The notes: a model not told the origin generated them from the letters alone. 64,000 bases of DNA from Caldicellulosiruptor danielii (GCF_034343125.1 NZ_CP139957.1:705001-769000), one strand, 5' to 3'. Positions 18,942 to 30,179 are shown, counted from the stretch's first letter. Numbers and translations are program-made.

Positions 18942-18989
18942 TAGGAGTATAAATAATTTGAGTTAAGGTTTTAATTTTTAAAAATTGAA

Positions 18990-19165
18990 AAAATTGCAGA
19001 AATTTAGAGTTAACTAAAGAAAAATATATTTTTTACTCAAAATTTGGCTGGAAATTAACTAAAAAAAGAAAAAACAGGATTGACAAAGAGAAAATATATA
19101 AGATATAATTTGTATAGAAATTCCAAGAAGATATTTACATAAAAAATAATTTAAGTATGGAATAG
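18990..19165 (+). repeat. Leader/promoter module, copy 1
   Basis: An A-rich tract followed by TTGACA (19080-19085), an 18-bp spacer and TATAAT (19104-19109), then TTGTATAGAAATTCCAAGAA. Copy 3 at 24.97 kb matches it over about 150 bp, including a perfect 22-base block after the -10 box. Copy 1 reads toward a degraded frame and then copy 2. The 18785-19789 gap holds only the terminator, copies 1 and 2, the degraded frame and a 5' hairpin. Confidence 0.75.
19080..19109 (+). promoter_or_regulatory. Promoter P1 of the first island cassette
   Basis: TTGACA-18-TATAAT with a preceding poly-A stretch that could be an UP element. It is the best consensus of the three copies. Confidence 0.7.
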
Positions 19166-19318
19166 TCTTAAAAGAGAATAAAAGAATGAATATACTAAAA
19201 GCTTAAGTTGATTGAAAAGATAAAAAGAAGACACTATTATGTAAGGTACAAGATATAATAAACTGTGTTCAAAATGCTTATCAACAATTTGTTTGCAATA
19301 AATCGGATAGAGCAGATG

Positions 19319-19510
19319 TAGAAAAAGCAGTTTATAATCAGAAAAATCGCAAGGTATTTTGAAAAAATTGAAAGTATATTGAGAGAGAGGTTGATATTTA
19401 GAGTGTTTATCCCAACTTTTGAAAAAGAGCCTATTTATTATAGAGTGTATTTTTTTGCTGTTCAATATCTAATAAAATTTGGAAAAATTACAAAATTAAA
19501 AGAAATTTAA
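19319..19510 (+). pseudogene. Degraded reading frame between the two promoter copies
   Basis: A stop-free stretch ends at TAA 19508-19510 and reads as coding-like protein (ILRERLIFRVFIPTFEKEPI, then YYRVYFFAVQYLIKFGKITK). It has no start codon or ribosome site, and another short coding-like stretch (DIINCVQNAYQQFVCNKSDR) lies in a different frame at about 19240-19340. Together they look like the remains of one gene after frameshifts. No family recognised. It could also be chance in AT-rich DNA. Confidence 0.3.
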
Positions 19511-19640
19511 AGAAAAGCTTAATAATTAGCTAAAAATTGGAAAAATATGAACTAAAAAATGAAAAAAAAGACAGGCTTGACAGGTAAATGTATAAATAAT
19601 AAAATATGTACAGAAATTTACAAGAATAAATCTACATTAA
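19505..19640 (+). repeat. Leader/promoter module, copy 2
   Basis: A more diverged copy of the module: A-rich tract, TTGACA (19577-19582), 17-bp spacer, TAAAAT (19600-19605), then ATGTACAGAAATTTACAAGA. This copy sits directly upstream of the secreted-protein gene at 19790 and is its probable promoter. Confidence 0.7.
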
Positions 19641-19726
19641 TGGTATATAATTCAATAAAAAATCAGAGAAATAGTTGTATTTAAAATTAACATTAATAAA
19701 GTAAATTAGATTCAGTGTTATTGCTG

Positions 19727-19761
19727 GCATCGGCCTTTCATGGGTACCTATGAAGGGATGC
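19727..19761 (+). promoter_or_regulatory. 5' UTR hairpin before the first secreted-protein gene
   Basis: GCATC at 19727-19731 pairs with GATGC at 19757-19761, and CCTTTCAT at 19734-19741 pairs with ATGAAGG at 19750-19756 with one bulged T. It lies 28 bases before the start codon and leaves the AGGAGG site free, so it may stabilise the mRNA. The second cassette has a hairpin in a comparable place. Confidence 0.6.
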
Positions 19762-19789
19762 GAATAGAAAAATTAGGAGGTGTGTGTTA

Positions 19790-20209
19790 ATGAGAAGTCT
19801 TAATTTCAAAAGTTTAATTTCAGTACTATGTTTATTTGCTTTTGCTTTAACATTTGTATTTGCACTAGCAGTAAGCGGTTCTTTCAACATAATATTGCCA
19901 GCTTTTAAAGGTGATACAAAAATTAATGGAGCATTTAAGGAAACAAATGACCAGTTTGTAAAGGTAAGACTTGATAGTAAAGGAGATTCATTATTAAGGG
20001 ATAACAATCAGGTTGATTTTTGGGTTACTGATTCAAATGGTAATTATATTACAAATGTTGTAGCAGTATCTCCTCAAAATGGTACTGTTAATATTGGTTT
20101 TACTAGTAACAATTATATTAATAAAGGAACTTATGTAAATTTGTGGACCCAAAATGACGTTGTAGATGTTGTGTCTGTCCAAGCAAGAGGCTGGTATGAT
20201 TTGCGCTAA
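19790..20209 (+). CDS. Small secreted protein, cassette 1
   Basis: 139 residues. A basic start and a long hydrophobic stretch (SLISVLCLFAFALTFVFALA) form a signal peptide, with a likely cut after ALA. The mature ~110 residues are polar, rich in Asn, Thr, Val and aromatic residues, and look all-beta (VDFWVTDSNGNYITNVVAV, YVNLWTQNDVVDVVSVQARG). The pattern recalls small secreted DUF2712-type proteins found beside ABC transporters, but I do not claim membership. ATG 19790 has AGGAGG at about ten bases. A hairpin follows before the permease genes, so it is probably made in excess over them. Confidence 0.7.
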   Translation: MRSLNFKSLISVLCLFAFALTFVFALAVSGSFNIILPAFKGDTKINGAFKETNDQFVKVRLDSKGDSLLRDNNQVDFWVTDSNGNYITNVVAVSPQNGTVNIGFTSNNYINKGTYVNLWTQNDVVDVVSVQARGWYDLR

Positions 20210-20226
20210 GTTTAATAAAGCTAATT

Positions 20227-20261
20227 TGTGGGGCTATAGCATTTATTGTTATAACCCCACA
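20227..20261 (+). terminator. Intercistronic hairpin (partial terminator) in cassette 1
   Basis: TGTGGGG at 20227-20233 pairs with CCCCACA at 20255-20261, extended by CTATA/TATAA. No long T run follows, which suits an attenuating or mRNA-stabilising hairpin between the secreted-protein gene and the transporter genes. Confidence 0.65.
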
Positions 20262-20289
20262 TTATCAAATGTTTAGGAGTGATTGTAAT

Positions 20290-21123
20290 TTGATTAATGT
20301 GTTAAAATATGAATTAAAGAGGTTATTTAGTAGAAAGGAATTTTTTATTGTAATGGTAATTGCCTTTTTTTACATAAGTGTCGATTTTATCTATCATTCA
20401 GTAATGTTAATCAATTCACCTCTTTTTGAACTACCATCTGCGTATCAGATGTGGATACTGTACAATAAGGTTGGTGGACAATGGGGACAGGTATTTGTTT
20501 TTTTCTTAATTCCATTGTTTGCAGCTATACCATATTCAGATTCTTATTTAGAAGATAAGAAGACAGGAGTTATAAATTTTATTGTCACACGGTGTGACAA
20601 AAGACTTTATCTTTTTTGTAAGGGAATAGCTGTCTTTTTCTCTGGTTTTATTGTGGTTTTTACACCATTGCTCATTGATCAGCTACTATGTCTTTGTTTA
20701 TTGCCTGTTTATTCTCCATCGGAAAATGTAGTTAACCATCCAACATATAATGCTTACCAATTTTTGAGCACGGTACAGTTTCCAAAATTGCATTCAATAA
20801 ATCCTTATTTGCATAATTTATTTTATATGCTTTTAAATGGCGTGTGTGCTGGTGTAATTGCTTTGGTTTCATATTCTATATCCTTCTTTAGAAAAATGAA
20901 CAGATATTTGGTGGTCATTTTAGTATTTTTATTCTATTTAATTGAAAATATTGCTGGAAGATTGATCAGTTCGTCAACTACTTTTTCGATATTTAATTAT
21001 TTATATATTCTTCCATTTTCATCTGAAATCACAAATTATCTGTATTTTCTAATCTTTATGCTTGTATTGATATTTGTAAGTCTTTTTATCATCAAATTAG
21101 AATGTAGTAAGGATGACGTGTAA
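20290..21123 (+). CDS. ABC-2 type permease subunit, cassette 1 (first)
   Basis: About 277 residues and six membrane helices, beginning MINVLKYELKRLFSRKEFFI, a typical N-terminus of ABC-2 or bacteriocin-immunity permeases. TTG 20290 is the start, ten bases after AGGAG; ATG 20269 upstream lacks a site. It is followed by a second permease with a one-base overlap. Such permeases pair with the ATPase at 22683. Substrate unknown; export of, or protection from, the secreted protein is the obvious guess. Confidence 0.75.
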   Translation: MINVLKYELKRLFSRKEFFIVMVIAFFYISVDFIYHSVMLINSPLFELPSAYQMWILYNKVGGQWGQVFVFFLIPLFAAIPYSDSYLEDKKTGVINFIVTRCDKRLYLFCKGIAVFFSGFIVVFTPLLIDQLLCLCLLPVYSPSENVVNHPTYNAYQFLSTVQFPKLHSINPYLHNLFYMLLNGVCAGVIALVSYSISFFRKMNRYLVVILVFLFYLIENIAGRLISSSTTFSIFNYLYILPFSSEITNYLYFLIFMLVLIFVSLFIIKLECSKDDV

Positions 21124-21881
21124 TGGAATTGAGGAAATTTTCCCATTTAAACTTGGCGAGAAAATTTACAGCTTATTTTGCAACTTTGTTAGTAGAATTT
21201 ATACTTGTGATTTCTACGTTTGAATTTTTGAGCAGAAATAAAACATGGACGATTGATTTAATTTTAGGTCAAATGTTTAAAGCAAACGTGATTACGTTTT
21301 TTTATGTTCCCATATTTCTTCTTTTAATAAGTTCGCAGGGATATACAAATAATTACCTGATTATTCTGAAATATTCTTATGTTGAAGATTGGTGGAAGGG
21401 AAAAATAAGAATTTTCCTGAAAGAAACCTTAACTTATTTTCTTTTAACATACACTATACCTTTAATAGTAACCATTATATTAAATTCAAAATATTTAAAA
21501 GTTTTAAGCTATAAGGAATTTATTTTCATTGTAGAATATCTGATTATTGCGTTTCTTTTATTGGTTATATATGGAACAGTATACCTTATTGTATTAACCA
21601 TTATTAAAAAAACTATTGCCGCATATGTAACTGGTGTATTAGTGTCTTTTATAGATTTCATCTTTATATACATCTTTAAAACAGGGAATTTTTCTGGTAT
21701 TACCATGGGTATGTTAATAAATTTTCTTATGAGCTATAGCCTATCACCAAAAAGGCAAATTTTTTTATTTGGAATATACCTTAGCTATTTCCTGTTGCTT
21801 TTTGGCGTATTGAACATTATTATGACAAATACACTCAAAAAAATTGATGTTTGTAGAGGTGATAAGAAATCAGAAAACTGA
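21123..21881 (+). CDS. Integral membrane protein, probable ABC-2 permease (second)
   Basis: 252 residues with six predicted helices (AYFATLLVEFILVISTFEF, ANVITFFYVPIFLLLI, TYFLLTYTIPLIVTIIL and others). Its ATG overlaps the stop of the preceding permease (TAATG), so the two are translationally coupled. No sequence motif identifies the substrate. Confidence 0.7.
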   Translation: MELRKFSHLNLARKFTAYFATLLVEFILVISTFEFLSRNKTWTIDLILGQMFKANVITFFYVPIFLLLISSQGYTNNYLIILKYSYVEDWWKGKIRIFLKETLTYFLLTYTIPLIVTIILNSKYLKVLSYKEFIFIVEYLIIAFLLLVIYGTVYLIVLTIIKKTIAAYVTGVLVSFIDFIFIYIFKTGNFSGITMGMLINFLMSYSLSPKRQIFLFGIYLSYFLLLFGVLNIIMTNTLKKIDVCRGDKKSEN

Positions 21882-21913
21882 TAAATAGTATTGTTGGTTC
21901 ATTTGTTATCTCA

Positions 21914-22660
21914 TTGTTAATTGATTTATACTGGCTGATGTATTTAAGATTTTATAAGAATACTTCAGCTGAAGTTTTTATAATCTTGAGTTTGGGTTAT
22001 TTACCTTTTCCGGGTAAAGTGACTTCATTTATGCCTCTTTTAATTTATGCCTTACCAAGATTATATCTTATTGCTGCCCTGGGAGATGTTTTTTCACACG
22101 ATTTTGAAAGAAGCGCTGTTTACATTTTTACAAGAAAAGACAGCAGGCTATCATGGTATTTTAATAAGCTTTCTTTCATATCTTTGCATATTTTGTCTTT
22201 TACAGTTACATTTGAAATAACTACAATACTATTTGCCCTGGCAAATAAATTTAGGGCTGAATCTTTTCTAAAGGGGCTTTTGTGTTGTGTAACAATGGTT
22301 CTGCTAAATTTTATTTCTATAGTGTTATTTATTATAGTTGCAAATGTATTATCATTATATGTAAACTCACGAATATCATTTCTGATTACTGTAATAGTTT
22401 GGGTAATATTCTTTATTCCTTCTTTTATATCTTTAAATGATTTCAATTATCTTTTAATAAAATTTAGTCCTGCTTTACAAGATGTTCTAAGTTGGCATAG
22501 TGATAGATTTATTGTAGATATAACTGGAATTTATGGAATAGATGGCATAAATGGTTTTAGCATATGGTGGTCAATGTTTATACTTGCTATTTATCTTTCA
22601 ATTGTGGTGGTAATAGGAATGAGAGTAGTTAAGAATATCGAAATATTAGAAAGAGATTGA
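21914..22660 (+). CDS. Integral membrane protein, probable ABC-2 permease (third)
   Basis: At least 248 residues, six helices. The start is unclear. TTG 21914 has no ribosome site, whereas the frame is coding-like back to about 21869 (IRKLINSIVGSFVISLLIDL) where GAGGTGAT sits seven bases before an ATC codon. The true product is therefore probably about 15 residues longer and may start at a rare codon, or one base has changed. The ATPase gene follows after about 20 bases. Confidence 0.65.
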   Translation: MLIDLYWLMYLRFYKNTSAEVFIILSLGYLPFPGKVTSFMPLLIYALPRLYLIAALGDVFSHDFERSAVYIFTRKDSRLSWYFNKLSFISLHILSFTVTFEITTILFALANKFRAESFLKGLLCCVTMVLLNFISIVLFIIVANVLSLYVNSRISFLITVIVWVIFFIPSFISLNDFNYLLIKFSPALQDVLSWHSDRFIVDITGIYGIDGINGFSIWWSMFILAIYLSIVVVIGMRVVKNIEILERD

Positions 22661-22682
22661 AAATAATGAGGTGATTTTAAAT

Positions 22683-23339
22683 ATGAAAGCAATAGAAGTA
22701 AGAAATTTAACAAAGATAATCAAAGGAAAAGTTATCCTGGATAATGTTAATCTTGAACTTGACGAAGGAAAGATTTATGGATTTTATGGTAGGAATGGTT
22801 CGGGTAAAACTATGTTATTTAGAGCTATATGTGGTTTGATAAAACCAACATCTGGAGAGATTATTGTTTTTGGGAAGAGGATAGGGAGAGATATTTCTTT
22901 TCCTGAGAGTGTAGGGGTAATTATAGAAAATGTTGACTTGTGGGATAGTTTAACTGGCTTTCAAAATCTCAAACTGCTGGCTTCTATCAAAAATGTAATT
23001 ACTGATGATGAGATCAAAAATGCGATAAAAAGAGTTGGGCTTGATCCAGAAGATAAAAGACCATATAAGAAATATTCGCTTGGCATGAAACAAAGATTAA
23101 AAATTGCACAAGCTATAATGGAAAGACCTAAATTGATTGTTCTTGACGAGCCAACAAATTCTCTTGATGAAGATGGTGTTAAACTTGTAAGACAAATTTT
23201 GATAGAAGAAAAAACAAGGGGGGCAACAATATTACTGGCAAGTCATATAAAAGAAGATATAAATTTGCTGTGTGATTATAAATTTAAAGTTGATTCGGGA
23301 AAAGTTTACTTTTCGGAGGAAGGAAACAAAGATGAATAA
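22683..23339 (+). CDS. ABC transporter ATPase, cassette 1
   Basis: 218 residues with Walker A GRNGSGKT, a signature YSLGMKQRLKIAQ, Walker B LIVLDEPTNSLDE and the switch His in LLASHIKED. It is the bacteriocin-immunity or drug-resistance type (BcrA/LanF-like), working as a dimer with the permeases encoded just upstream. ATG 22683 follows GAGGTG; the frame's earlier GTG overlaps that site. The next gene overlaps its end by eight bases. Confidence 0.85.
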   Translation: MKAIEVRNLTKIIKGKVILDNVNLELDEGKIYGFYGRNGSGKTMLFRAICGLIKPTSGEIIVFGKRIGRDISFPESVGVIIENVDLWDSLTGFQNLKLLASIKNVITDDEIKNAIKRVGLDPEDKRPYKKYSLGMKQRLKIAQAIMERPKLIVLDEPTNSLDEDGVKLVRQILIEEKTRGATILLASHIKEDINLLCDYKFKVDSGKVYFSEEGNKDE

Positions 23340-24011
23340 GAAGTGGCTTGTGGTTATTTTTATTATTTTAGTCCTGGATGTGACTGTAGGTTTTTTGGTA
23401 AAAAGAACCTTTTTCTATGTTAATTCACAGACTATAAGTGAAAAAATAAAGGACAAATGCCTTTTTTTATGTGGTGGCAGTTTTAAGGATTGCGATATTA
23501 GAAAAATTTCGTTAGAAGAGATTATTAAAGATTCTGATGTTATTGTAAGTGGTAGGGCACTGAGCGATAGAATTTATGTAAAAGGTGCAGTCCTGACAGC
23601 TTTTAATGTTGTCAAGGCTTACAAAGGTAAGATCACAAATTCGAAGATTTACATATTTGAGCCAAGTTATTTTAATTTAGGTAGGTATAATAATTATTTT
23701 GCATACTGTGGTTATAATCTTATGAAACCGGGTCATCAATATGTTCTTTTTTAAAAAAATGGAAATATACAAATTTTGTTAGATATAATCCGTATTATAG
23801 AGGCAAGGAGATTTATACTTTTGCTCATAATTCTGCTATTGAAAAATTTGAAATTAATAAATTAAATATTACAAAAGTGATTAACTTTGAAGATGATATT
23901 ATTAGATATGGTCAAGTGAAAGATTATGAAGTTTTTGTATATAACAAAAATGAATTAGCTGAATACTATCAACTAAAAGAGAAGGTATTGAATTGGATTT
24001 CTCAAAATTAG
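23332..24011 (+). pseudogene. Membrane-anchored NTR-like protein, interrupted by a frameshift
   Basis: The frame opens at ATG 23332 behind GGAGG with one N-terminal membrane helix (KWLVVIFIILVLDVTVGFLV) and a beta-rich domain (EEIIKDSDVIVSGRAL, VVKAYKGKI, GHQYVLF) of the kind seen in small secreted NTR/OB-fold proteins. It stops at TAA 23752-23754 inside a T6A7 run at 23747-23759. Coding continues in the -1 frame (LKKWKYTNFVRYNPYYRGKE) to TAG 24009-24011, giving about 226 residues if read through. Slippage at the run, a real mutation, or a sequence error are all possible. Confidence 0.65.
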
Positions 24012-24178
24012 TGGAAAGTTGATAAAGACATATTTTTGTTTGTTGCAGAGCAAAAGATAAAAAGAGAACAAAGATGAATGAATAATAAAAAGTTTTTCCT
24101 GCGCTTAATAACCGAAAATTCAATAGATTTTTATTGAAAAATTCAAAAATGTCTTAAATTCATTGGTGGCTATATAGC

Positions 24179-24277
24179 ATGGGCTTTGGAATATATATTA
24201 TATTATTCATGGAACTGTTGTTGGATGGAAAGCTTATGGCAAATAAATTTTTTGGAAAGGAATGTAATAAAGAATGA
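24179..24277 (+). CDS. Possible 32-codon frame coupled to the next gene
   Basis: ATG 24179 to TGA 24275-24277, which overlaps the next start in an ATGA. The product (MGFGIYIILFMELLLDGKLM plus a basic tail) would be a single membrane helix with a charged end. A GGTGG lies about ten bases before the ATG. The coupling is the main argument; it may instead be the tail of a decayed gene. Confidence 0.3.
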   Translation: MGFGIYIILFMELLLDGKLMANKFFGKECNKE

Positions 24278-24546
24278 TTAAAATAAAGAATGGAGCATGG
24301 TTTTTTACTGCATTTGTGCTACTGATTGCTATAGTATGGAAATGTATTAAGGGTAGAAAACTAAACAAAGATTTAATAGAATATTATATACCAGCGTTTT
24401 TACTCTTTTTAATTTTAGGGATATTAGGTTTATTTAACTTAAACAAAAGTGTTTTTAATATTATTGCAATATGTTTGTTTGTTTTATATGTGATATATCT
24501 AATTGCAATGACATTAAAAGAAATACAAAAAAATAAAGTTCGATAA
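24274..24546 (+). CDS. Small membrane protein at the end of cassette 1
   Basis: 90 residues with three helices (AWFFTAFVLLIAIVWKCI, YIPAFLLFLILGILGLF, NIIAICLFVLYVIYLIAM) and a basic C-terminus. AAAGGAATG precedes the ATG. The size and topology resemble small immunity proteins or accessory subunits, but no family is recognised. Confidence 0.6.
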   Translation: MIKIKNGAWFFTAFVLLIAIVWKCIKGRKLNKDLIEYYIPAFLLFLILGILGLFNLNKSVFNIIAICLFVLYVIYLIAMTLKEIQKNKVR

Positions 24547-24581
24547 TAAAAACAAAAATAATATTCAAAGTAATAACAAAA

Positions 24582-24620
24582 GGGGCTCATAAATTCAAAA
24601 ATTTTGAAGAGCCCCCTTTT
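24582..24620. terminator. Bidirectional terminator next to the GH130 fragment
   Basis: An AAAGGGGCTC / GAGCCCCCTTTT inverted repeat, with an inner AAATTC/AATTTT loop region, stands between cassette 1 and the GH130 fragment. An equivalent hairpin is found beside the intact GH130 gene at 29.05 kb. Confidence 0.65.
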
Positions 24621-24812
24621 ATTTTGCCTGCAAATCCCCCTCAATCAGTATAGATAAAATCCGGTCAATTTCAGCAAATGCAAGGGCAATGCATGAGTCT
24701 GCCGCGCCATAGTAAAGATAGATTGTATTATCTTCGACAATTGCACCACAGGTGAACACCACATTGTTCACATCACCAATTCTCTCATGTATGCTTTCTG
24801 ATAAAAACTTTC
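24619..24812 (-). pseudogene. 3' fragment of a GH130 glycoside phosphorylase gene
   Basis: On the minus strand this reads HERIGDVNNVVFTCGAIVED and onward to AEIDRILSILIEGDLQAK-stop, the last ~65 residues of the GH130 protein encoded intact at 29086-30036. The two copies differ at roughly one base in eight, so they are diverged alleles rather than a fresh duplication. Similarity fades near 24812, and a sequence like an IS30-type terminus follows about 65 bases further on. No start is left, so it cannot be functional. Confidence 0.85.
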
Positions 24813-24875
24813 ATCGTGTAAAATATCCTCACAGTAAATTAGTCTGTACCATTGAAATCTTCGATGTTTTTAAGT

Positions 24876-24900
24876 TGTTGCATTTAATTTTACAACAAAT
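24876..24900. repeat. Sequence matching the IS30-type terminal repeat (possible scar)
   Basis: TGTTGCATTTAATTTTACAA at 24876-24895, plus CAAA, matches the right end of the IS30-type element at 36877-36900 with one mismatch in 24 bases. Nothing else of an IS remains here. It stands just beyond the broken end of the GH130 fragment. The 24812-25292 gap otherwise holds only promoter module copy 3 and a 5' hairpin. Confidence 0.5.
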
Positions 24901-24969
24901 TGTCAAAACTCTATAATTACTTTTAAGCAAAGTAAATTAACTTTTTTATTGTAAACTTAAGAAAATCAA

Positions 24970-25130
24970 AGGAATTTTAATTTATTTAAAGAAAAATGTA
25001 TTCTAAGCTCAAAATTGGGCTGAAATAAGCTAAAAAAAAAAAAAAACGGGTTTGACAGAGTGAAAATGTATAAGATAAAATTTGTATAGAAATTCCAAGA
25101 AGAAAATTACAGAGAAATTATTTTAAGTAT
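24970..25130 (+). repeat. Leader/promoter module, copy 3
   Basis: TTGACA (25052-25057), an 18-bp spacer and TAAAAT (25076-25081) follow a 15-base A run; the downstream TTGTATAGAAATTCCAAGAA block is identical to copy 1. It drives the second cassette. Confidence 0.75.
25052..25081 (+). promoter_or_regulatory. Promoter P3 of the second island cassette
   Basis: TTGACA-18-TAAAAT inside module copy 3, with an A-tract directly upstream. Confidence 0.68.
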
Positions 25131-25224
25131 TTAACAACAGCAAAGTAAAATAAAATATGAAAAATATCAAAATATTTAGTGAGTTGAAATAATAGTATGC
25201 AATATTATCTATCTGATATAGTAA

Positions 25225-25251
25225 AAACCTCTATTGCGCGCAAAGAGGTTT
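25225..25251 (+). promoter_or_regulatory. 5' UTR hairpin before the second secreted-protein gene
   Basis: AAACCTC at 25225-25231 pairs with GAGGTTT at 25245-25251 around a TATTGCGCGCAAA loop. It lies about 40 bases before the start codon, like the hairpin of cassette 1, although the sequences differ. Confidence 0.6.
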
Positions 25252-25292
25252 AAATATTAAGATGCTATTAAATTAAACCAGGAGGGATTATA

Positions 25293-25925
25293 ATGAGCAA
25301 ATACAGACATTTTACCAATAATAAGGTATTTATATTTAGAGTTTTTGTTTGTTTATTAGTTTTTACTTGCTTATTAAGTAACGTTTGTTTTGCTGCACCA
25401 GAAGAAGTTTCGTTATCAGTGTATTTTAACGAAACAAATATTCAGAAAGGTATTGTGATTCCTTTAGTTTCGTGGTCTAAATCATTAACAATTCCAAATG
25501 GCGGCGGTACTCTAACCTCTAACGTGTGGAGATCAACTTTTGCGGAAGGACCCGGGAATACTTTGAACTGGGATTATCAGGTATCTGCAGTTTATGAAGG
25601 TAATAAAAAAGTTATTATGATAAAAACAGAGTGGTGGTGTACAGCCTCATTGAGAAACAGTGCCTCAATTTCAATGTCAATAACAGTGAATGATAAGTCA
25701 TGGATTGAAAGCTTTTCAGCTGGGTCTTCTTCATCATGGCAGAATGTTTCAACAAGAAAATTTTCTTGGACAAATGATAATGGAGCAAAAATTGCGTGGT
25801 ATCGTTCAAATTTTTCAATAGGTCCGAAAATAGATTACCGAGATGACTCAGTGTGTACGTATAATACTGCTTATGTTAAAGTGCAGGGGTATCCACAAAC
25901 TTTTATGATTACAGCAAGTATTTAA
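25293..25925 (+). CDS. Secreted protein, cassette 2
   Basis: 210 residues. A typical signal peptide (VFIFRVFVCLLVFTCLLSNV, then CFA) ends in an AXA-like cut before APEEV. The mature part is rich in Ser, Trp and Asn and looks all-beta (WRSTFAEGPGNTLNWDYQVS, MIKTEWWCTASLRNSASISM). It has two cysteines, in WWCTAS and SVCTYN. A strong CAGGAGGGA site precedes ATG 25293. I recognise no family. By position it is the counterpart of the secreted protein of cassette 1. Confidence 0.72.
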   Translation: MSKYRHFTNNKVFIFRVFVCLLVFTCLLSNVCFAAPEEVSLSVYFNETNIQKGIVIPLVSWSKSLTIPNGGGTLTSNVWRSTFAEGPGNTLNWDYQVSAVYEGNKKVIMIKTEWWCTASLRNSASISMSITVNDKSWIESFSAGSSSSWQNVSTRKFSWTNDNGAKIAWYRSNFSIGPKIDYRDDSVCTYNTAYVKVQGYPQTFMITASI

Positions 25926-25967
25926 AAAGTATATTCACTTTCAATAAAGTTTGTAAATTGTTATCAA

Positions 25968-26003
25968 GGGCTGGTGCTTTTTTATCATGCACTAGCCCCT
26001 TTC
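25968..26003 (+). terminator. Intercistronic hairpin (partial terminator) in cassette 2
   Basis: GGGCTGGTGC at 25968-25977 pairs with GCACTAGCCC at 25989-25998 (one G-U), followed by CTTTCATAATT. It has the same position as the hairpin after the first secreted-protein gene. Confidence 0.75.
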
Positions 26004-26045
26004 ATAATTATAAAAAGGTATAGCTTAGCTAGTGAGGTATGTCAT

Positions 26046-27014
26046 TTGAGATTTAAAAATTTAAAAATAGTTACATTAGTATTTATTTTTGTAATGCTGA
26101 ATGGTTGTTCTTTCTATCACACGGCTTATGTAAAATCTAAAGGAGGTAATCTTGAATCATTTGGAAGAGAAACTATATTACCACAATATATACCACCTAA
26201 AAATTGTAAGGTTTTGTTTAAACATTGGAACCAAAGATTTGTGGTTTATAATTTAAGTCTCAAAAAAGAAATAAAAGAATTGATGGGAGGGAATTATTTT
26301 GGCTATTCATTTAAAGTGAAGAGTGACTACTACACAGTAGGTGATAGTTACACAAATGGATTTTCAATTGTTAAATGTGATGGTGAAAGAATTAAAGAAA
26401 TTTACAGGTTAAAAGATCAAAAATGGCAGGCAATATTTCCGTTGGCAACAGATGGTAAAAAAATCTTTTTTATAGTTGGTTATTATAAACCTGCAATAGG
26501 TCATAATATCAACGAAAAGTATAGAATTATTGCTAGATGGGACTATAAAAATAAGAAGTTAATAGAATATCGATATACTAAAGGGGCAATTTGTGATGGT
26601 ACTATCATAGGAAAGTTTTTATATTATACTTCTTACGATTTTGAAAAAGAAAAATATGAAATTTACAAGTTAAATATTGCTAATGCAAAAAATAAACCTC
26701 AGTTAATAGGGAAGTTTGAAAAGCTGATGGGGTTATATAACATTAATGAAGAGTTATATATATGGAATGGTAAGGAATTTTTTTGTTTTTCGAAGCCTGT
26801 AGAAAAAATTTATTTTAATAAAGCTTTTGATGTTATTTACATTGGTAATAACAATATTTTAGTGTTTTATACTGATTCATTTGCAAGAATTGCAGCAGAT
26901 ATAATTGATGTCAAATCAAGGATTGTTAAAAAAACATTTACAAATATTGTAGCTGTAAATTTTGAAGGAGATCAAGTAGTCATATATGGAGATGGATATA
27001 TAGAAAAGTTTTAG
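26046..27014 (+). CDS. Lipoprotein, cassette 2
   Basis: About 322 residues from TTG 26046, which has GAGGT seven bases upstream; the open frame runs further 5' through the hairpin. A short signal (LKIVTLVFIFVMLNGC) gives a lipobox ending in NGC. The rest is a run of beta-strand repeats with aromatic ends (FKVKSDYYTVGDSYTNGFSI, KIFFIVGYYKPAIGHNINEK, GTIIGKFLYYTSYDFEKEKY), which suggests a beta-propeller of the kind found in surface lipoproteins. It may capture the secreted protein or feed the ABC transporter. Confidence 0.7.
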   Translation: MRFKNLKIVTLVFIFVMLNGCSFYHTAYVKSKGGNLESFGRETILPQYIPPKNCKVLFKHWNQRFVVYNLSLKKEIKELMGGNYFGYSFKVKSDYYTVGDSYTNGFSIVKCDGERIKEIYRLKDQKWQAIFPLATDGKKIFFIVGYYKPAIGHNINEKYRIIARWDYKNKKLIEYRYTKGAICDGTIIGKFLYYTSYDFEKEKYEIYKLNIANAKNKPQLIGKFEKLMGLYNINEELYIWNGKEFFCFSKPVEKIYFNKAFDVIYIGNNNILVFYTDSFARIAADIIDVKSRIVKKTFTNIVAVNFEGDQVVIYGDGYIEKF

Positions 27015-27040
27015 AAAAGTAGAGGAGGATAAATTTACAA

Positions 27041-27664
27041 ATGATACAATTAATTAATGTATTCAAAAAATATGGTGAGAAAATAATATTAAACAATATA
27101 TGTTTCACTTTTGAAAAAGGGTCTATCTACATAATTAATGGGAAAAATGGCAGCGGAAAATCAACTCTTCTGAATATTATTGCAGGCTATATTAAACCAG
27201 ATTCAGGCACAATCATAATAAATGATGAACAATGTATAGGTTATGTTTATCAAGAAGATCTTTTGTTAACAAATTTGACTGTTGAAGAAAATTTTTACTT
27301 AAAATACTTAGCATCAAAGAATATAAATTTAAATTGGTACAAATGTCAGAAGGAAGAGATTTTTAGAATTTTGAATTTACAAAAATTAAAAGATAAAAGA
27401 GTATCTTTTCTATCTGGGGGCGAAAAGAAACGCTTGCAGTTCGCACAGCTTTTGCTCTCTCAACCACATGTTTTTTTACTTGATGAGATATTTTCAGCTT
27501 TAGACGAAGAAAGTGAGGATGTTGTTATAAGAATACTTGAAAAAATTAGTAAAGACAAAATTATAATAATTGTGAGTCATAAAGAATTAAACTTTAAAAT
27601 TGAAACAATAAGTTTGAAACTTGAAGAAGGGAGATTAATACTCAATGACAAAAGAAGTTTATAA
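27041..27664 (+). CDS. ABC transporter ATPase, cassette 2
   Basis: 207 residues with Walker A GKNGSGKST, a Q-loop in YVYQEDLL, signature LSGGEKKR, Walker B HVFLLDEIFSALDEE and switch His in VSHKE. It is of the LolD/MacB group rather than the BcrA group of cassette 1. GAGGAGG precedes the ATG. Its end overlaps the permease gene by 20 bases, so the two are coupled. Confidence 0.85.
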   Translation: MIQLINVFKKYGEKIILNNICFTFEKGSIYIINGKNGSGKSTLLNIIAGYIKPDSGTIIINDEQCIGYVYQEDLLLTNLTVEENFYLKYLASKNINLNWYKCQKEEIFRILNLQKLKDKRVSFLSGGEKKRLQFAQLLLSQPHVFLLDEIFSALDEESEDVVIRILEKISKDKIIIIVSHKELNFKIETISLKLEEGRLILNDKRSL

Positions 27665-28859
27665 ACTAATTAATAGAAAAACCTCATTATATTTAAGGAT
27701 CTCAATTGTAATATTTATATTTTCTATATTTCTTCTTGTAACCATTATTTTAGAAGGTACTGATCAATATTTTAAATTTAGCGGGCAATTTATAGAGAAT
27801 AAAAATACTCATGTTATACAAGTTACTTTAAAAAAATACGGCAACAAATTTAGAGGGTTAGTATTAGCAGATGAAAAAGAAATAAAGGAATTACTTAGAA
27901 ATAACTTAAAAAATATTAAATTCGATATTATTAAACATTATCAGATACCGTTTGGGACAGTAGACGAAACTGGTTATGTTTATTTTATTAATGGATTATC
28001 TGGAAATGGAAAAGTTTTGCTGGGTATAGATGATGATTTCAAAAAAAATGGGATTGGTTATACTTTACATACTTCAAAGGAGGGGATAAAAACATTAAAC
28101 ATTCCTGTAATAACTGTTAATAATGGGAATATGCAAAGTTCAAATATTTTTAAAGTATCCTTGTTTGTAAGAAGAATTGATGCTAAGAAATGTTTTTTAA
28201 GAATATTTGATCCTACTCCGCAACAAGCTACAGATTTATACGTGAATGAGCAAACGTTCAGAAATATTCAAAAAAAGATGTTTAATATATCAGATTATAG
28301 TTCTAAGACTTTAGGTAATGATAGTAAGTTTCAGGAAGTAAATGATATCTATGTTTATGTGTATGATATTACAAAAGTAGAAGAAGTTGCGTCTATATTA
28401 GAAAGATATGGATATCAAACAAGATACATTTTAAAAGCATTTGATAATTTTGGTTCAACATTTAATAGTATCATTTTATCTAATTTTATAACAGTGTTTA
28501 TTGTTTTTATATTTTCTATTTTTAATCTACTGTTTGCTTTTTACTTGTTTTTACGTCTGCAACAAAGAGACATAGGTATTTTATTTCATTATGGTTTTTC
28601 TATAAGGGAAATATATGATATTTATTCCTACAGTATTAATCGTATTTTTATTAAGGTAATGTTATTAACATTTGTCTACATAGGAGTTGCTGGTATTATT
28701 TTCTTGAGTAAAAATAGATTAGTTACATTGTTACTGGTAGAGTTAATATTTACATTGTTGTTATTTAGTATTAATACCTTTGTAAGAAGAATTATTTTAT
28801 GCAATTTTGTTAAAAAATCGCCTATTGAATTAATAAATGCAGGAAAGGAGTTTAAATAA
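27645..28859 (+). CDS. MacB/FtsX-type permease, cassette 2
   Basis: 404 residues. One N-terminal helix (LRISIVIFIFSIFLLVTIIL), a ~250-residue outside domain, then three C-terminal helices (FITVFIVFIFSIFNLLFAFY, VMLLTFVYIGVAGIIF, LLVELIFTLLLFSIN). This is the four-helix mechanotransmission type used by MacB and FtsX and also by permeases beside lactococcin-972-like bacteriocins. It ends cassette 2; a terminator follows. Confidence 0.78.
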   Translation: MTKEVYKLINRKTSLYLRISIVIFIFSIFLLVTIILEGTDQYFKFSGQFIENKNTHVIQVTLKKYGNKFRGLVLADEKEIKELLRNNLKNIKFDIIKHYQIPFGTVDETGYVYFINGLSGNGKVLLGIDDDFKKNGIGYTLHTSKEGIKTLNIPVITVNNGNMQSSNIFKVSLFVRRIDAKKCFLRIFDPTPQQATDLYVNEQTFRNIQKKMFNISDYSSKTLGNDSKFQEVNDIYVYVYDITKVEEVASILERYGYQTRYILKAFDNFGSTFNSIILSNFITVFIVFIFSIFNLLFAFYLFLRLQQRDIGILFHYGFSIREIYDIYSYSINRIFIKVMLLTFVYIGVAGIIFLSKNRLVTLLLVELIFTLLLFSINTFVRRIILCNFVKKSPIELINAGKEFK

Positions 28860-29047: not shown

Positions 29048-29090
29048 AAAAGGAGCTTTTCACAAAAATTTTGAAGAGCCCCTTTTTATT
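29048..29090. terminator. Hairpin at the 3' end of the intact GH130 gene
   Basis: AAAAGGAGCTTTTCA at 29048-29062 pairs imperfectly with TGAAGAGCCCCTTTTT at 29072-29087. It would end the minus-strand GH130 transcript, and it corresponds to the hairpin beside the GH130 fragment at 24.6 kb. Confidence 0.65.
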
Positions 29091-30036
29091 TTACCTGCAA
29101 ATCTCCTTCAATCAATATAGACAAAATCTGGTCAATCTCAGCAAATGCCAAAGCAATGCAAGAGTCAGCAGCTCCATAGTAAAGATAAATTTGATTGTCT
29201 TCAACAATTGCACCGCAGGTGAACACAACATTGTTCACATCGCCAATTCTTTCATATACCTCTTGAGGGGATAAGAGCCACTCAGGACATCTTTTTTTGA
29301 CCTTTGCAGGATTTTCTAAATCCAAAAGTGCTGCGCCAAGCCTGTAAATTGGGCCTGATGGCATCATCTTAACACCATGGTAGATTATAAGCCAGCCTTC
29401 AGGTGTTTTTATTGGCACAGCCCCTGCTCCAACTTTAAACCCGTCCCACCAAGGACCACCTTTTTCAACAAGTACAACCTCATGATTTCCCCAGTGAATT
29501 AAGTCTGATGAGTATGCAATCCAGATATGTTCAATATCACCTGCAACAGGTCGGTGCAGCATTGCATATCTTCCGTTTATCTTTTCAGGGAACAAAACCG
29601 CGTCTTTGTTGTTTGGAGGGCAAATCAGCCCAAGCCTTTCAACTTTTTTAAAGTTTTTAGTTCGTGCAAGAGCAACAGCAGGACCATAACGGGAGTATGC
29701 AGTGTATGTGATGTAATAGTAATCATCCTCTGGGATGTATGTTATTCTGGGATCTTCACAGCCAAACTCTTCGTAAATAAAAACTGTCGGCTGAGGGTAT
29801 ATCAGGGGCGATTTTTCGATCTTCCAATTGGTCTTGCCATCGGCGCTTTTTGCAACGGTAAGGTGCGATTTTCCTTGCCTGTCTTCAACTCTCAAAAGCA
29901 GTAGGTACTCATTTTTATACTTTATAGCACCTGCGTTAAAAACTGCGTTTGCTGAGTATGGTATATCATATACTGTGATTATTGGATTTCCACTGTAGCG
30001 CGTAAATATATCCTTTTTTGCAAAGACCTTCTTCAT
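29086..30036 (-). CDS. GH130 beta-mannoside phosphorylase-like protein
   Basis: About 316 residues, five-bladed propeller of GH130. SGNPIITVYDIPYSANAVFN opens the protein, the catalytic Asp is expected in LLLRVEDRQGKSHLT, and GCEDPRITYIPEDD, HIWIAYSSDLIHWG and GWLIIYHGVKM follow. GH130 enzymes phosphorolyse beta-1,4-mannosyl or mannosylglucose bonds in the cytoplasm; the exact acceptor cannot be told. ATG at 30036 has GGGGGG eight bases upstream. A truncated, diverged copy of its 3' end lies 4.5 kb away on the other side of cassette 2. Confidence 0.9.
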   Translation of the reverse strand: MKKVFAKKDIFTRYSGNPIITVYDIPYSANAVFNAGAIKYKNEYLLLLRVEDRQGKSHLTVAKSADGKTNWKIEKSPLIYPQPTVFIYEEFGCEDPRITYIPEDDYYYITYTAYSRYGPAVALARTKNFKKVERLGLICPPNNKDAVLFPEKINGRYAMLHRPVAGDIEHIWIAYSSDLIHWGNHEVVLVEKGGPWWDGFKVGAGAVPIKTPEGWLIIYHGVKMMPSGPIYRLGAALLDLENPAKVKKRCPEWLLSPQEVYERIGDVNNVVFTCGAIVEDNQIYLYYGAADSCIALAFAEIDQILSILIEGDLQVK

Positions 30037-30179
30037 GTAAAATCCCCCCAAAATGATTTATCTATACAATGAAATATACCACATTTTCTGTTGAATCATT
30101 ACAAAAAAATTATTAAAATATTTTTAAAAAACTGTCAAGGACAAAGAAAAACAAAAATTTAGCGGGGTGATTTTTAAAA

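What the first reader, a model, noticed from the sequence alone, without database searches (positions are those of the whole stretch)
19505..28859. Twin cassettes: secreted protein, attenuating hairpin, ABC transporter with accessory proteins
Cassette 1 (19505-24546): secreted 139-residue protein, three ABC-2 permeases, BcrA-type ATPase, NTR-like anchored protein, small membrane protein. Cassette 2 (24970-28859): secreted 210-residue protein, lipoprotein, LolD-type ATPase, MacB-type permease. The proteins are unrelated in sequence but the layout (repeated promoter module, 5' hairpin, secreted gene, intercistronic hairpin, transporter) is the same. This suggests interchangeable modules under one control, such as secreted antagonists with transporter-based self-protection, or secreted surface factors with retrieval systems. 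Neither secreted protein matches a bacteriocin family I can name.
Basis: partly seen in the sequence, partly recalled or inferred. Interest (0 to 1): 0.75.

Follow-up and report, generated by a model that had tools for sequence, protein, structure and literature searches.

The report
Bacteriocin-type cassettes under one promoter
Two gene sets, each making a secreted protein plus a membrane pump, sit behind copies of a promoter that this genus of heat-loving bacteria also uses for many recognised bacteriocin operons, so they are most likely antibacterial proteins with built-in self-protection; the first belongs to a widespread family that the protein databases searched here do not name.

Summary
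The cassettes are real. The repeated promoter is not local: a ~240-bp module with a near-perfect sigma-A promoter occurs about 90 times in the genus. Of 52 strong copies, 33 precede recognised or GG-peptide bacteriocin/RiPP genes: C39 peptide exporters with double-glycine peptides, circular bacteriocins, a lantibiotic with LanM, and radical-SAM maturases. Nearly every C39 exporter in the genus lies behind it or in a cluster behind it.

Cassette 1's secreted protein is a confidently predicted jelly-roll (pLDDT 92). No Pfam or NCBIfam model covers the relatives tested. They are spread over Bacillota, encoded first in an operon with permeases (usually three), an ATPase and a tethered protein. In three related genomes the secreted gene is decayed or lost; in two of them the transporter genes remain full length, which is the orphan-immunity pattern.

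Cassette 2 was found in only two of 13 family genomes and has no recognisable relatives, so its function rests on layout and the shared promoter.

Corrections: the "small membrane protein" is the tail of a decayed third cassette; the tethered-protein gene is frameshifted; the 5' hairpins are not significant (the intercistronic ones are); "MacB" and "LolD" labels are weak.

Antibacterial activity is inferred, not shown. Regulator unknown.

The parts
18981..19225 (+). promoter module copy 1, no intact gene set behind it; promoter TTGACA-18-TATAAT at 19080-19109
19475..19640 (+). promoter module copy 2 (diverged form), drives cassette 1; promoter at 19577-19605
19725..19763 (+). 5' hairpin before the secreted gene, not more stable than shuffles
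   Evidence: z -1.39
19790..20209 (+). cassette 1 secreted jelly-roll protein, 139 aa (141 from GTG 19784); mature part modelled from about 19871
20227..20261 (+). intercistronic hairpin, cassette 1
   Evidence: z -4.05
20269..21123 (+). permease 1 of cassette 1 (a relative in L142 matches ABC2_membrane_4)
21123..21881 (+). permease 2 of cassette 1
21914..22660 (+). permease 3 of cassette 1 (a relative in L142 matches DUF2705)
22683..23339 (+). ABC ATPase of cassette 1, best NCBIfam TIGR03740 below cutoff
23332..24011 (+). tethered single-TM protein of cassette 1, frameshifted near 23740 (first ORF ends 23754)
24190..24546 (+). remnant of a third cassette: tail of a 116-aa Gly/Ala-rich peptide gene (24190-24243) and the intact 90-aa membrane protein (24274-24546)
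24596..24801 (-). duplicated 3' end of the flanking gene whose full copy is at 29086-30051
24953..25200 (+). promoter module copy 3, drives cassette 2; promoter at 25052-25081
25225..25251 (+). 5' hairpin; a near-identical one precedes the cassette 1 homologue of genome G009
   Evidence: (z -1.04)
25293..25925 (+). cassette 2 secreted protein, 210 aa, beta-rich low-confidence model
25968..25998 (+). intercistronic hairpin, cassette 2
   Evidence: z -4.15
26046..27014 (+). lipoprotein of cassette 2 (lipobox LNGC; ORF can start at 25974)
27041..27664 (+). ABC ATPase of cassette 2, best NCBIfam TIGR03608 below cutoff
27645..28859 (+). permease of cassette 2, 404 aa, 1+3 hydrophobic segments by eye

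Best explanation
The region is one site of a genus-wide bacteriocin regulon. A ~240-bp promoter module with a strong sigma-A type promoter drives separate, exchangeable cassettes. In each cassette here a Sec-secreted beta-rich protein is made from the first gene, an intercistronic hairpin lowers expression of what follows, and the downstream ABC transporter with an outward-facing tethered protein (single-TM in cassette 1, lipoprotein in cassette 2) protects the producer by clearing or sequestering the secreted protein at its own membrane, in the manner of LanFEG/LanI and of lactococcin 972-type loci. Shown: the shared module, what lies behind its copies, operon conservation, the jelly-roll prediction, and transporters kept after loss of the secreted gene. 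Inferred: antibacterial activity, self-protection, attenuation, joint regulation.
For: Module copies throughout the genus. Downstream of them, above curated cutoffs: TIGR01193 C39 peptide exporter, TIGR03651 circular bacteriocin, NF000539 lantibiotic and TIGR03897 LanM, and Pfam radical-SAM/SPASM domains, plus double-glycine peptides read by eye. 47 of 52 strong copies precede a recurring cassette, 33 of them recognised or GG-peptide bacteriocin/RiPP genes. C39 exporters of the genus lie behind the module, with rare exceptions. The secreted family is the first gene of the transporter operon in about 43 loci across Bacillota and in profile hits elsewhere. In three genus genomes the secreted gene is decayed or absent; G003 keeps all five other genes full length without stops and G007 nearly so. 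A comparable state, immunity/transporter genes without the bacteriocin gene, is described for streptococcin B (PMC11796350). Closest ATPase models are TIGR03740 (lantibiotic protection) and TIGR03608 (lactococcin 972 group), both below cutoff.
Against: No activity data. The jelly-roll fold is common and its matches (PirA, GOLD domains, carbohydrate-binding modules, endospore-appendage proteins) point to no single function. The module also precedes a murein amidase-like gene and genes of unknown function, and weak copies precede ordinary-looking genes. Cassette 2 is known from two genomes only. The tethered-protein gene is broken in the window, so that protection part may be missing or dispensable here. 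Signal peptides were judged by eye.
Confidence: 0.6

Rival explanations
1. Secreted surface or assembly factors (adhesin, pilus-like or carbohydrate-binding jelly-roll proteins), with the ABC transporter as a retrieval or assembly system.
For: Jelly-roll fold with matches to Ena endospore-appendage proteins and to carbohydrate-binding modules at Z 6.7-7.6.
Against: Matches are at the level expected for a common fold. Transporters persist without the secreted gene in G003 and G007. The promoter is shared with bacteriocin operons. No sortase or assembly enzyme model matched in the cassettes.
Confidence: 0.15
2. Resistance cassettes: the transporter removes antimicrobials made by others and the secreted protein is a decoy or sensor.
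For: ATPase nearest to the lantibiotic protection subfamily; transporter kept without the secreted gene.
Against: The secreted gene is the first, promoter-proximal gene almost everywhere and is tandemly multiplied in L190 and L204, which suits a product made in quantity. The module otherwise drives production operons.
Confidence: 0.13
3. The ABC transporter is the exporter of the secreted protein.
For: Tight operon linkage.
Against: N-termini look like ordinary Sec signal peptides; two genomes keep the transporter with no substrate gene.
Confidence: 0.05
4. The module is only a mobile or often-duplicated strong promoter without common control.
For: About 90 copies, some weak copies before ordinary genes; the regulator is unknown; some operons duplicated together with the promoter.
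Against: Conservation is concentrated in the promoter and upstream box over 83 copies. It is shared by non-homologous bacteriocin operons and oriented with them.
Confidence: 0.2

Closest known systems
Lactococcin 972-type loci, including streptococcin B (scbABC)
   Same: Secreted unmodified protein with ordinary signal sequence, followed by predicted immunity and ABC transporter genes; immunity genes can persist without the bacteriocin gene (PMC4289311, PMC11796350)
   Different: No Pfam lactococcin 972 match; mature parts are larger (112 residues modelled for cassette 1); cassette 1 has three ABC-2 permeases and a tethered protein; ATPases are below the TIGR03608 cutoff
LanFEG/LanI lantibiotic self-protection
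   Same: LanF-like ATPase, several ABC-2 permeases and a tethered outward protein
   Different: Below the TIGR03740 cutoff (178.7 against 309.75); no lanthipeptide enzyme in the cassette; the protected product would be a folded protein
Co-regulated bacteriocin sets of streptococci (blp and competence regulon)
   Same: One control signal for several unrelated bacteriocin operons (PMC11796350)
   Different: Here the shared element is a ~240-bp module with a near-consensus promoter; no pheromone or regulator identified
RiPP clusters of Caldicellulosiruptor (PMC4289311)
   Same: Same kinds of clusters: class II lanthipeptide, circularin A-like, sactipeptide
   Different: That paper lists clusters one by one; the word promoter does not occur in its text, and the two secreted-protein cassettes were not seen in the passages read

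Membership tests
Lactococcin 972 family | secreted precursor matches the Pfam lactococcin 972 model | tested here: not met
   no such match for either secreted protein at E up to 5
Lactococcin 972 family | ATPase above TIGR03608 cutoff | tested here: not met
   cassette 2: 128.1 against 254.85 bits; cassette 1: 108.7
Lactococcin 972 family | Sec-type signal peptide on the bacteriocin | tested here: inconclusive
   hydrophobic N-termini with plausible cleavage sites by eye; no dedicated predictor run
LanFEG immunity transporter | ATPase above TIGR03740 cutoff | tested here: not met
   178.7 against 309.75 bits
LanFEG immunity transporter | encoded with lanthipeptide precursor and synthetase | tested here: not met
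   no such model matched in the cassette
ABC-2 type transporter | permeases match an ABC-2 membrane family | tested here: inconclusive
   window permeases: no match; relatives in L142 match PF12730 and PF10920 just above cutoff
Bacteriocin regulon of the genus | preceded by the shared promoter module | tested here: met
Bacteriocin regulon of the genus | module copies precede curated bacteriocin/RiPP genes elsewhere | tested here: met
   TIGR01193, TIGR03651, NF000539, TIGR03897 above cutoff; 33 of 52 strong copies in recognised or GG-peptide categories; reciprocal check
Bacteriocin | inhibits related bacteria | not testable with these tools
   needs protein and strains
MacB/FtsX-type permease (cassette 2) | FtsX domain match | tested here: not met
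   no Pfam match at E up to 5

The most novel reading that the evidence does not exclude
A single promoter element controls the whole antagonism arsenal of a thermophile genus as plug-in cassettes, and cassette 1 defines a new, widespread class of Sec-secreted jelly-roll antibacterial proteins with its own three-permease self-protection transporter.
Probability: 0.4. Interest if true: 0.78.

Novelty: new variant of a known kind. Interest (0 to 1): 0.62.

Why it matters
If true, the promoter module becomes a handle: every gene set behind a copy is a candidate antibacterial system. It would also add a class of folded, secreted antibacterial proteins across Bacillota that the domain libraries searched here do not name, in organisms whose proteins are heat-stable.

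Tried and rejected
The first alignments failed on strand. Pattern search with the diverse secreted alignment was impossible, so the ATPase was used instead. Structure of secreted protein 2: two sequences only, pLDDT 60; Foldseek gave nothing usable, and its alpha-hemolysin and leukotoxin rows have TM about 0.2 and were discounted. Solved-structure sequence searches gave no relative of either secreted protein. A relation to DUF2712 (recalled resemblance) was not supported: no DUF2712 match in ten genomes that carry cassette 1 relatives, positive control in B. subtilis. Plasmid searches for three secreted proteins: none. PADLOC: only generic ATPase matches. Viral fold library: generic beta-sandwich matches. 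Cassette 2 permease: no relative outside the genus among 398 sampled genomes of the phylum. Lactococcin 972 was not among the structural matches listed for secreted protein 1, which proves nothing.

Full report
Observation. The window is G000:C1:705001-769000 of a 2.82-Mb genome. I take the genus to be Caldicellulosiruptor from gene content and from the fit of its bacteriocin clusters with those published for that genus (PMC4289311); this is an inference. The cassette ORFs are present as described. The region is poorer in G+C than its surroundings (0.26-0.30 against mostly 0.34-0.42). Three copies of one promoter module lie in it, with near-consensus promoters. Both intercistronic hairpins are strong (z about -4), and a comparable one lies at the same place in the G009 relative (z -4.7). 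The two 5' hairpins are not significant.

What is behind the module. Searching 21 genomes with the cassette 2 leader gave matches in 12, all of the genus except one trivial hit, up to 14 per genome. I fetched the surroundings, located 92 copies (one of them held in two loci) and read the genes behind them. Library matches above curated cutoffs include a C39 peptidase-type peptide exporter (TIGR01193, PF03412), a circular bacteriocin (TIGR03651, PF09221), a plantaricin C family lantibiotic precursor with LanM (NF000539, TIGR03897), an Amidase_6 protein, radical-SAM/SPASM domains, PqqD and a DPBB domain. The exporter operons also carry small peptides with double-glycine leaders, read directly from sequence. 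Of 52 strong copies, 47 precede one of a limited set of recurring cassettes, 33 of which fall in recognised or double-glycine-peptide bacteriocin/RiPP categories (my grouping of clusters). Conversely, of 27 C39 hits in 12 genomes of the genus, most lie directly behind a module copy, several others lie further down in a cluster that starts with one, and a partial one in G010 has none (one search compared by eye). Conservation over 83 copies is concentrated in an upstream A-rich box, a run of A, TTGACA and the -10 region, and fades about 100 bases into the transcribed part.

Cassette 1. The secreted protein has relatives at 84-87% in three genus genomes, 45% in G009, and distant ones in other genera. 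A scan for the ATPase gave 80 loci, mostly Bacillota with a few Actinomycetota. Iterated profile search found the secreted family in about 43 of these, as the gene before two or three permeases, the ATPase and usually a single-TM protein. In B. spizizenii and a Clostridium the secreted gene is tandemly repeated. The outlying subgroups of the alignment (the WSPDS group and the group of L170/L184) are less certain members. A second, deeper profile search over 398 genomes found two loci of one further genome, and the one examined is also linked to such a transporter; in G105 the contig ends too early to tell. None of eight relatives matches Pfam and none of the five tested matches NCBIfam. AlphaFold with 38 sequences gives a confident jelly-roll (pLDDT 91.6, pTM 0.86). 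Structural matches are broad and at the level of a common fold, so they do not tell function.

Loss pattern. In G003 and G007 the secreted gene is reduced to its last 34-38 codons with stops, yet the permeases, ATPase and tethered protein are full length, apart from a stop near the end of the G007 ATPase relative to the window. In G006 the secreted gene is absent and the transporter is decaying too. In genomes with an intact secreted gene the permeases and ATPase are intact. This is what orphan immunity looks like and is hard to reconcile with an exporter or a retrieval system.

Cassette 2. Its secreted protein was found in G000 and G007 only, with a low-confidence beta-rich model. Its permease has no relative outside the genus in the sample. 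Its ATPase is closest to the lactococcin 972 group. Its assignment rests on layout and on carrying the strong form of the module.

The island. The same chromosomal site in other genus members carries different line-ups of module-driven cassettes in front of the same flanking gene. The window keeps a module without genes (18981), cassette 1, the tail of a third cassette (24190-24546), a duplicated piece of the flanking gene, and cassette 2. G007 shows a similar arrangement with the same gene fragment. This suggests gain and loss of whole cassettes by recombination.

Mechanism. My best reading is Sec-secreted antibacterial proteins with transporter-based self-protection under a common bacteriocin promoter, probability about 0.6. 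Steps not shown: activity, protection, co-expression, hairpin attenuation and the regulator. Papers found give analogues for each (PMC4289311, PMC11796350); one search joining the genus with bacteriocin, regulon and promoter found no paper on such a module. Absence in this library is not proof of novelty.

Noticed in passing
L043, L056, L081 (behind diverged modules): A further cassette of the same layout in related genomes: 141-aa secreted protein (c78), ABC ATPase, permeases and a 143-aa single-TM protein; no family match for the secreted protein.
   Followed up: partly
L068:8935-9285, L090 (remnant at window 24190-24243): 116-aa Gly/Ala-rich protein without family match, followed by a small membrane protein, behind the module: a possible bacteriocin-immunity pair.
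   Followed up: partly
L067:17558-18415 and relatives: 285-aa secreted protein of unknown family followed by a 168-195-aa protein, repeatedly behind the strong module.
   Followed up: no
L054:15105-15710: Amidase_6 secreted protein behind the module, so the regulon may include cell-wall hydrolases.
   Followed up: no
window 24953-25000 and other copies: The upstream box reads as four imperfect repeats of 10 bases (AAGAAAATTT-like), one helical turn apart: curved DNA or an array of binding sites; not tested statistically.
   Followed up: no
window 24596-24791 and 29063-29258: 87% duplicated 3' end of a minus-strand gene that looks like a GH130 glycosidase (by memory of the family, not tested).
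   Followed up: partly
L130:9315-9872 and L132:4719-5291: Genes that look like ECF sigma factors lie upstream of the cassette 1 relatives in other genera, hinting at different control there.
   Followed up: no
L064 and L072: Weak module copies before what look like sugar-metabolism genes (DeoR/PfkB/PTS-like by eye): chance or a wider role of the promoter.
   Followed up: no
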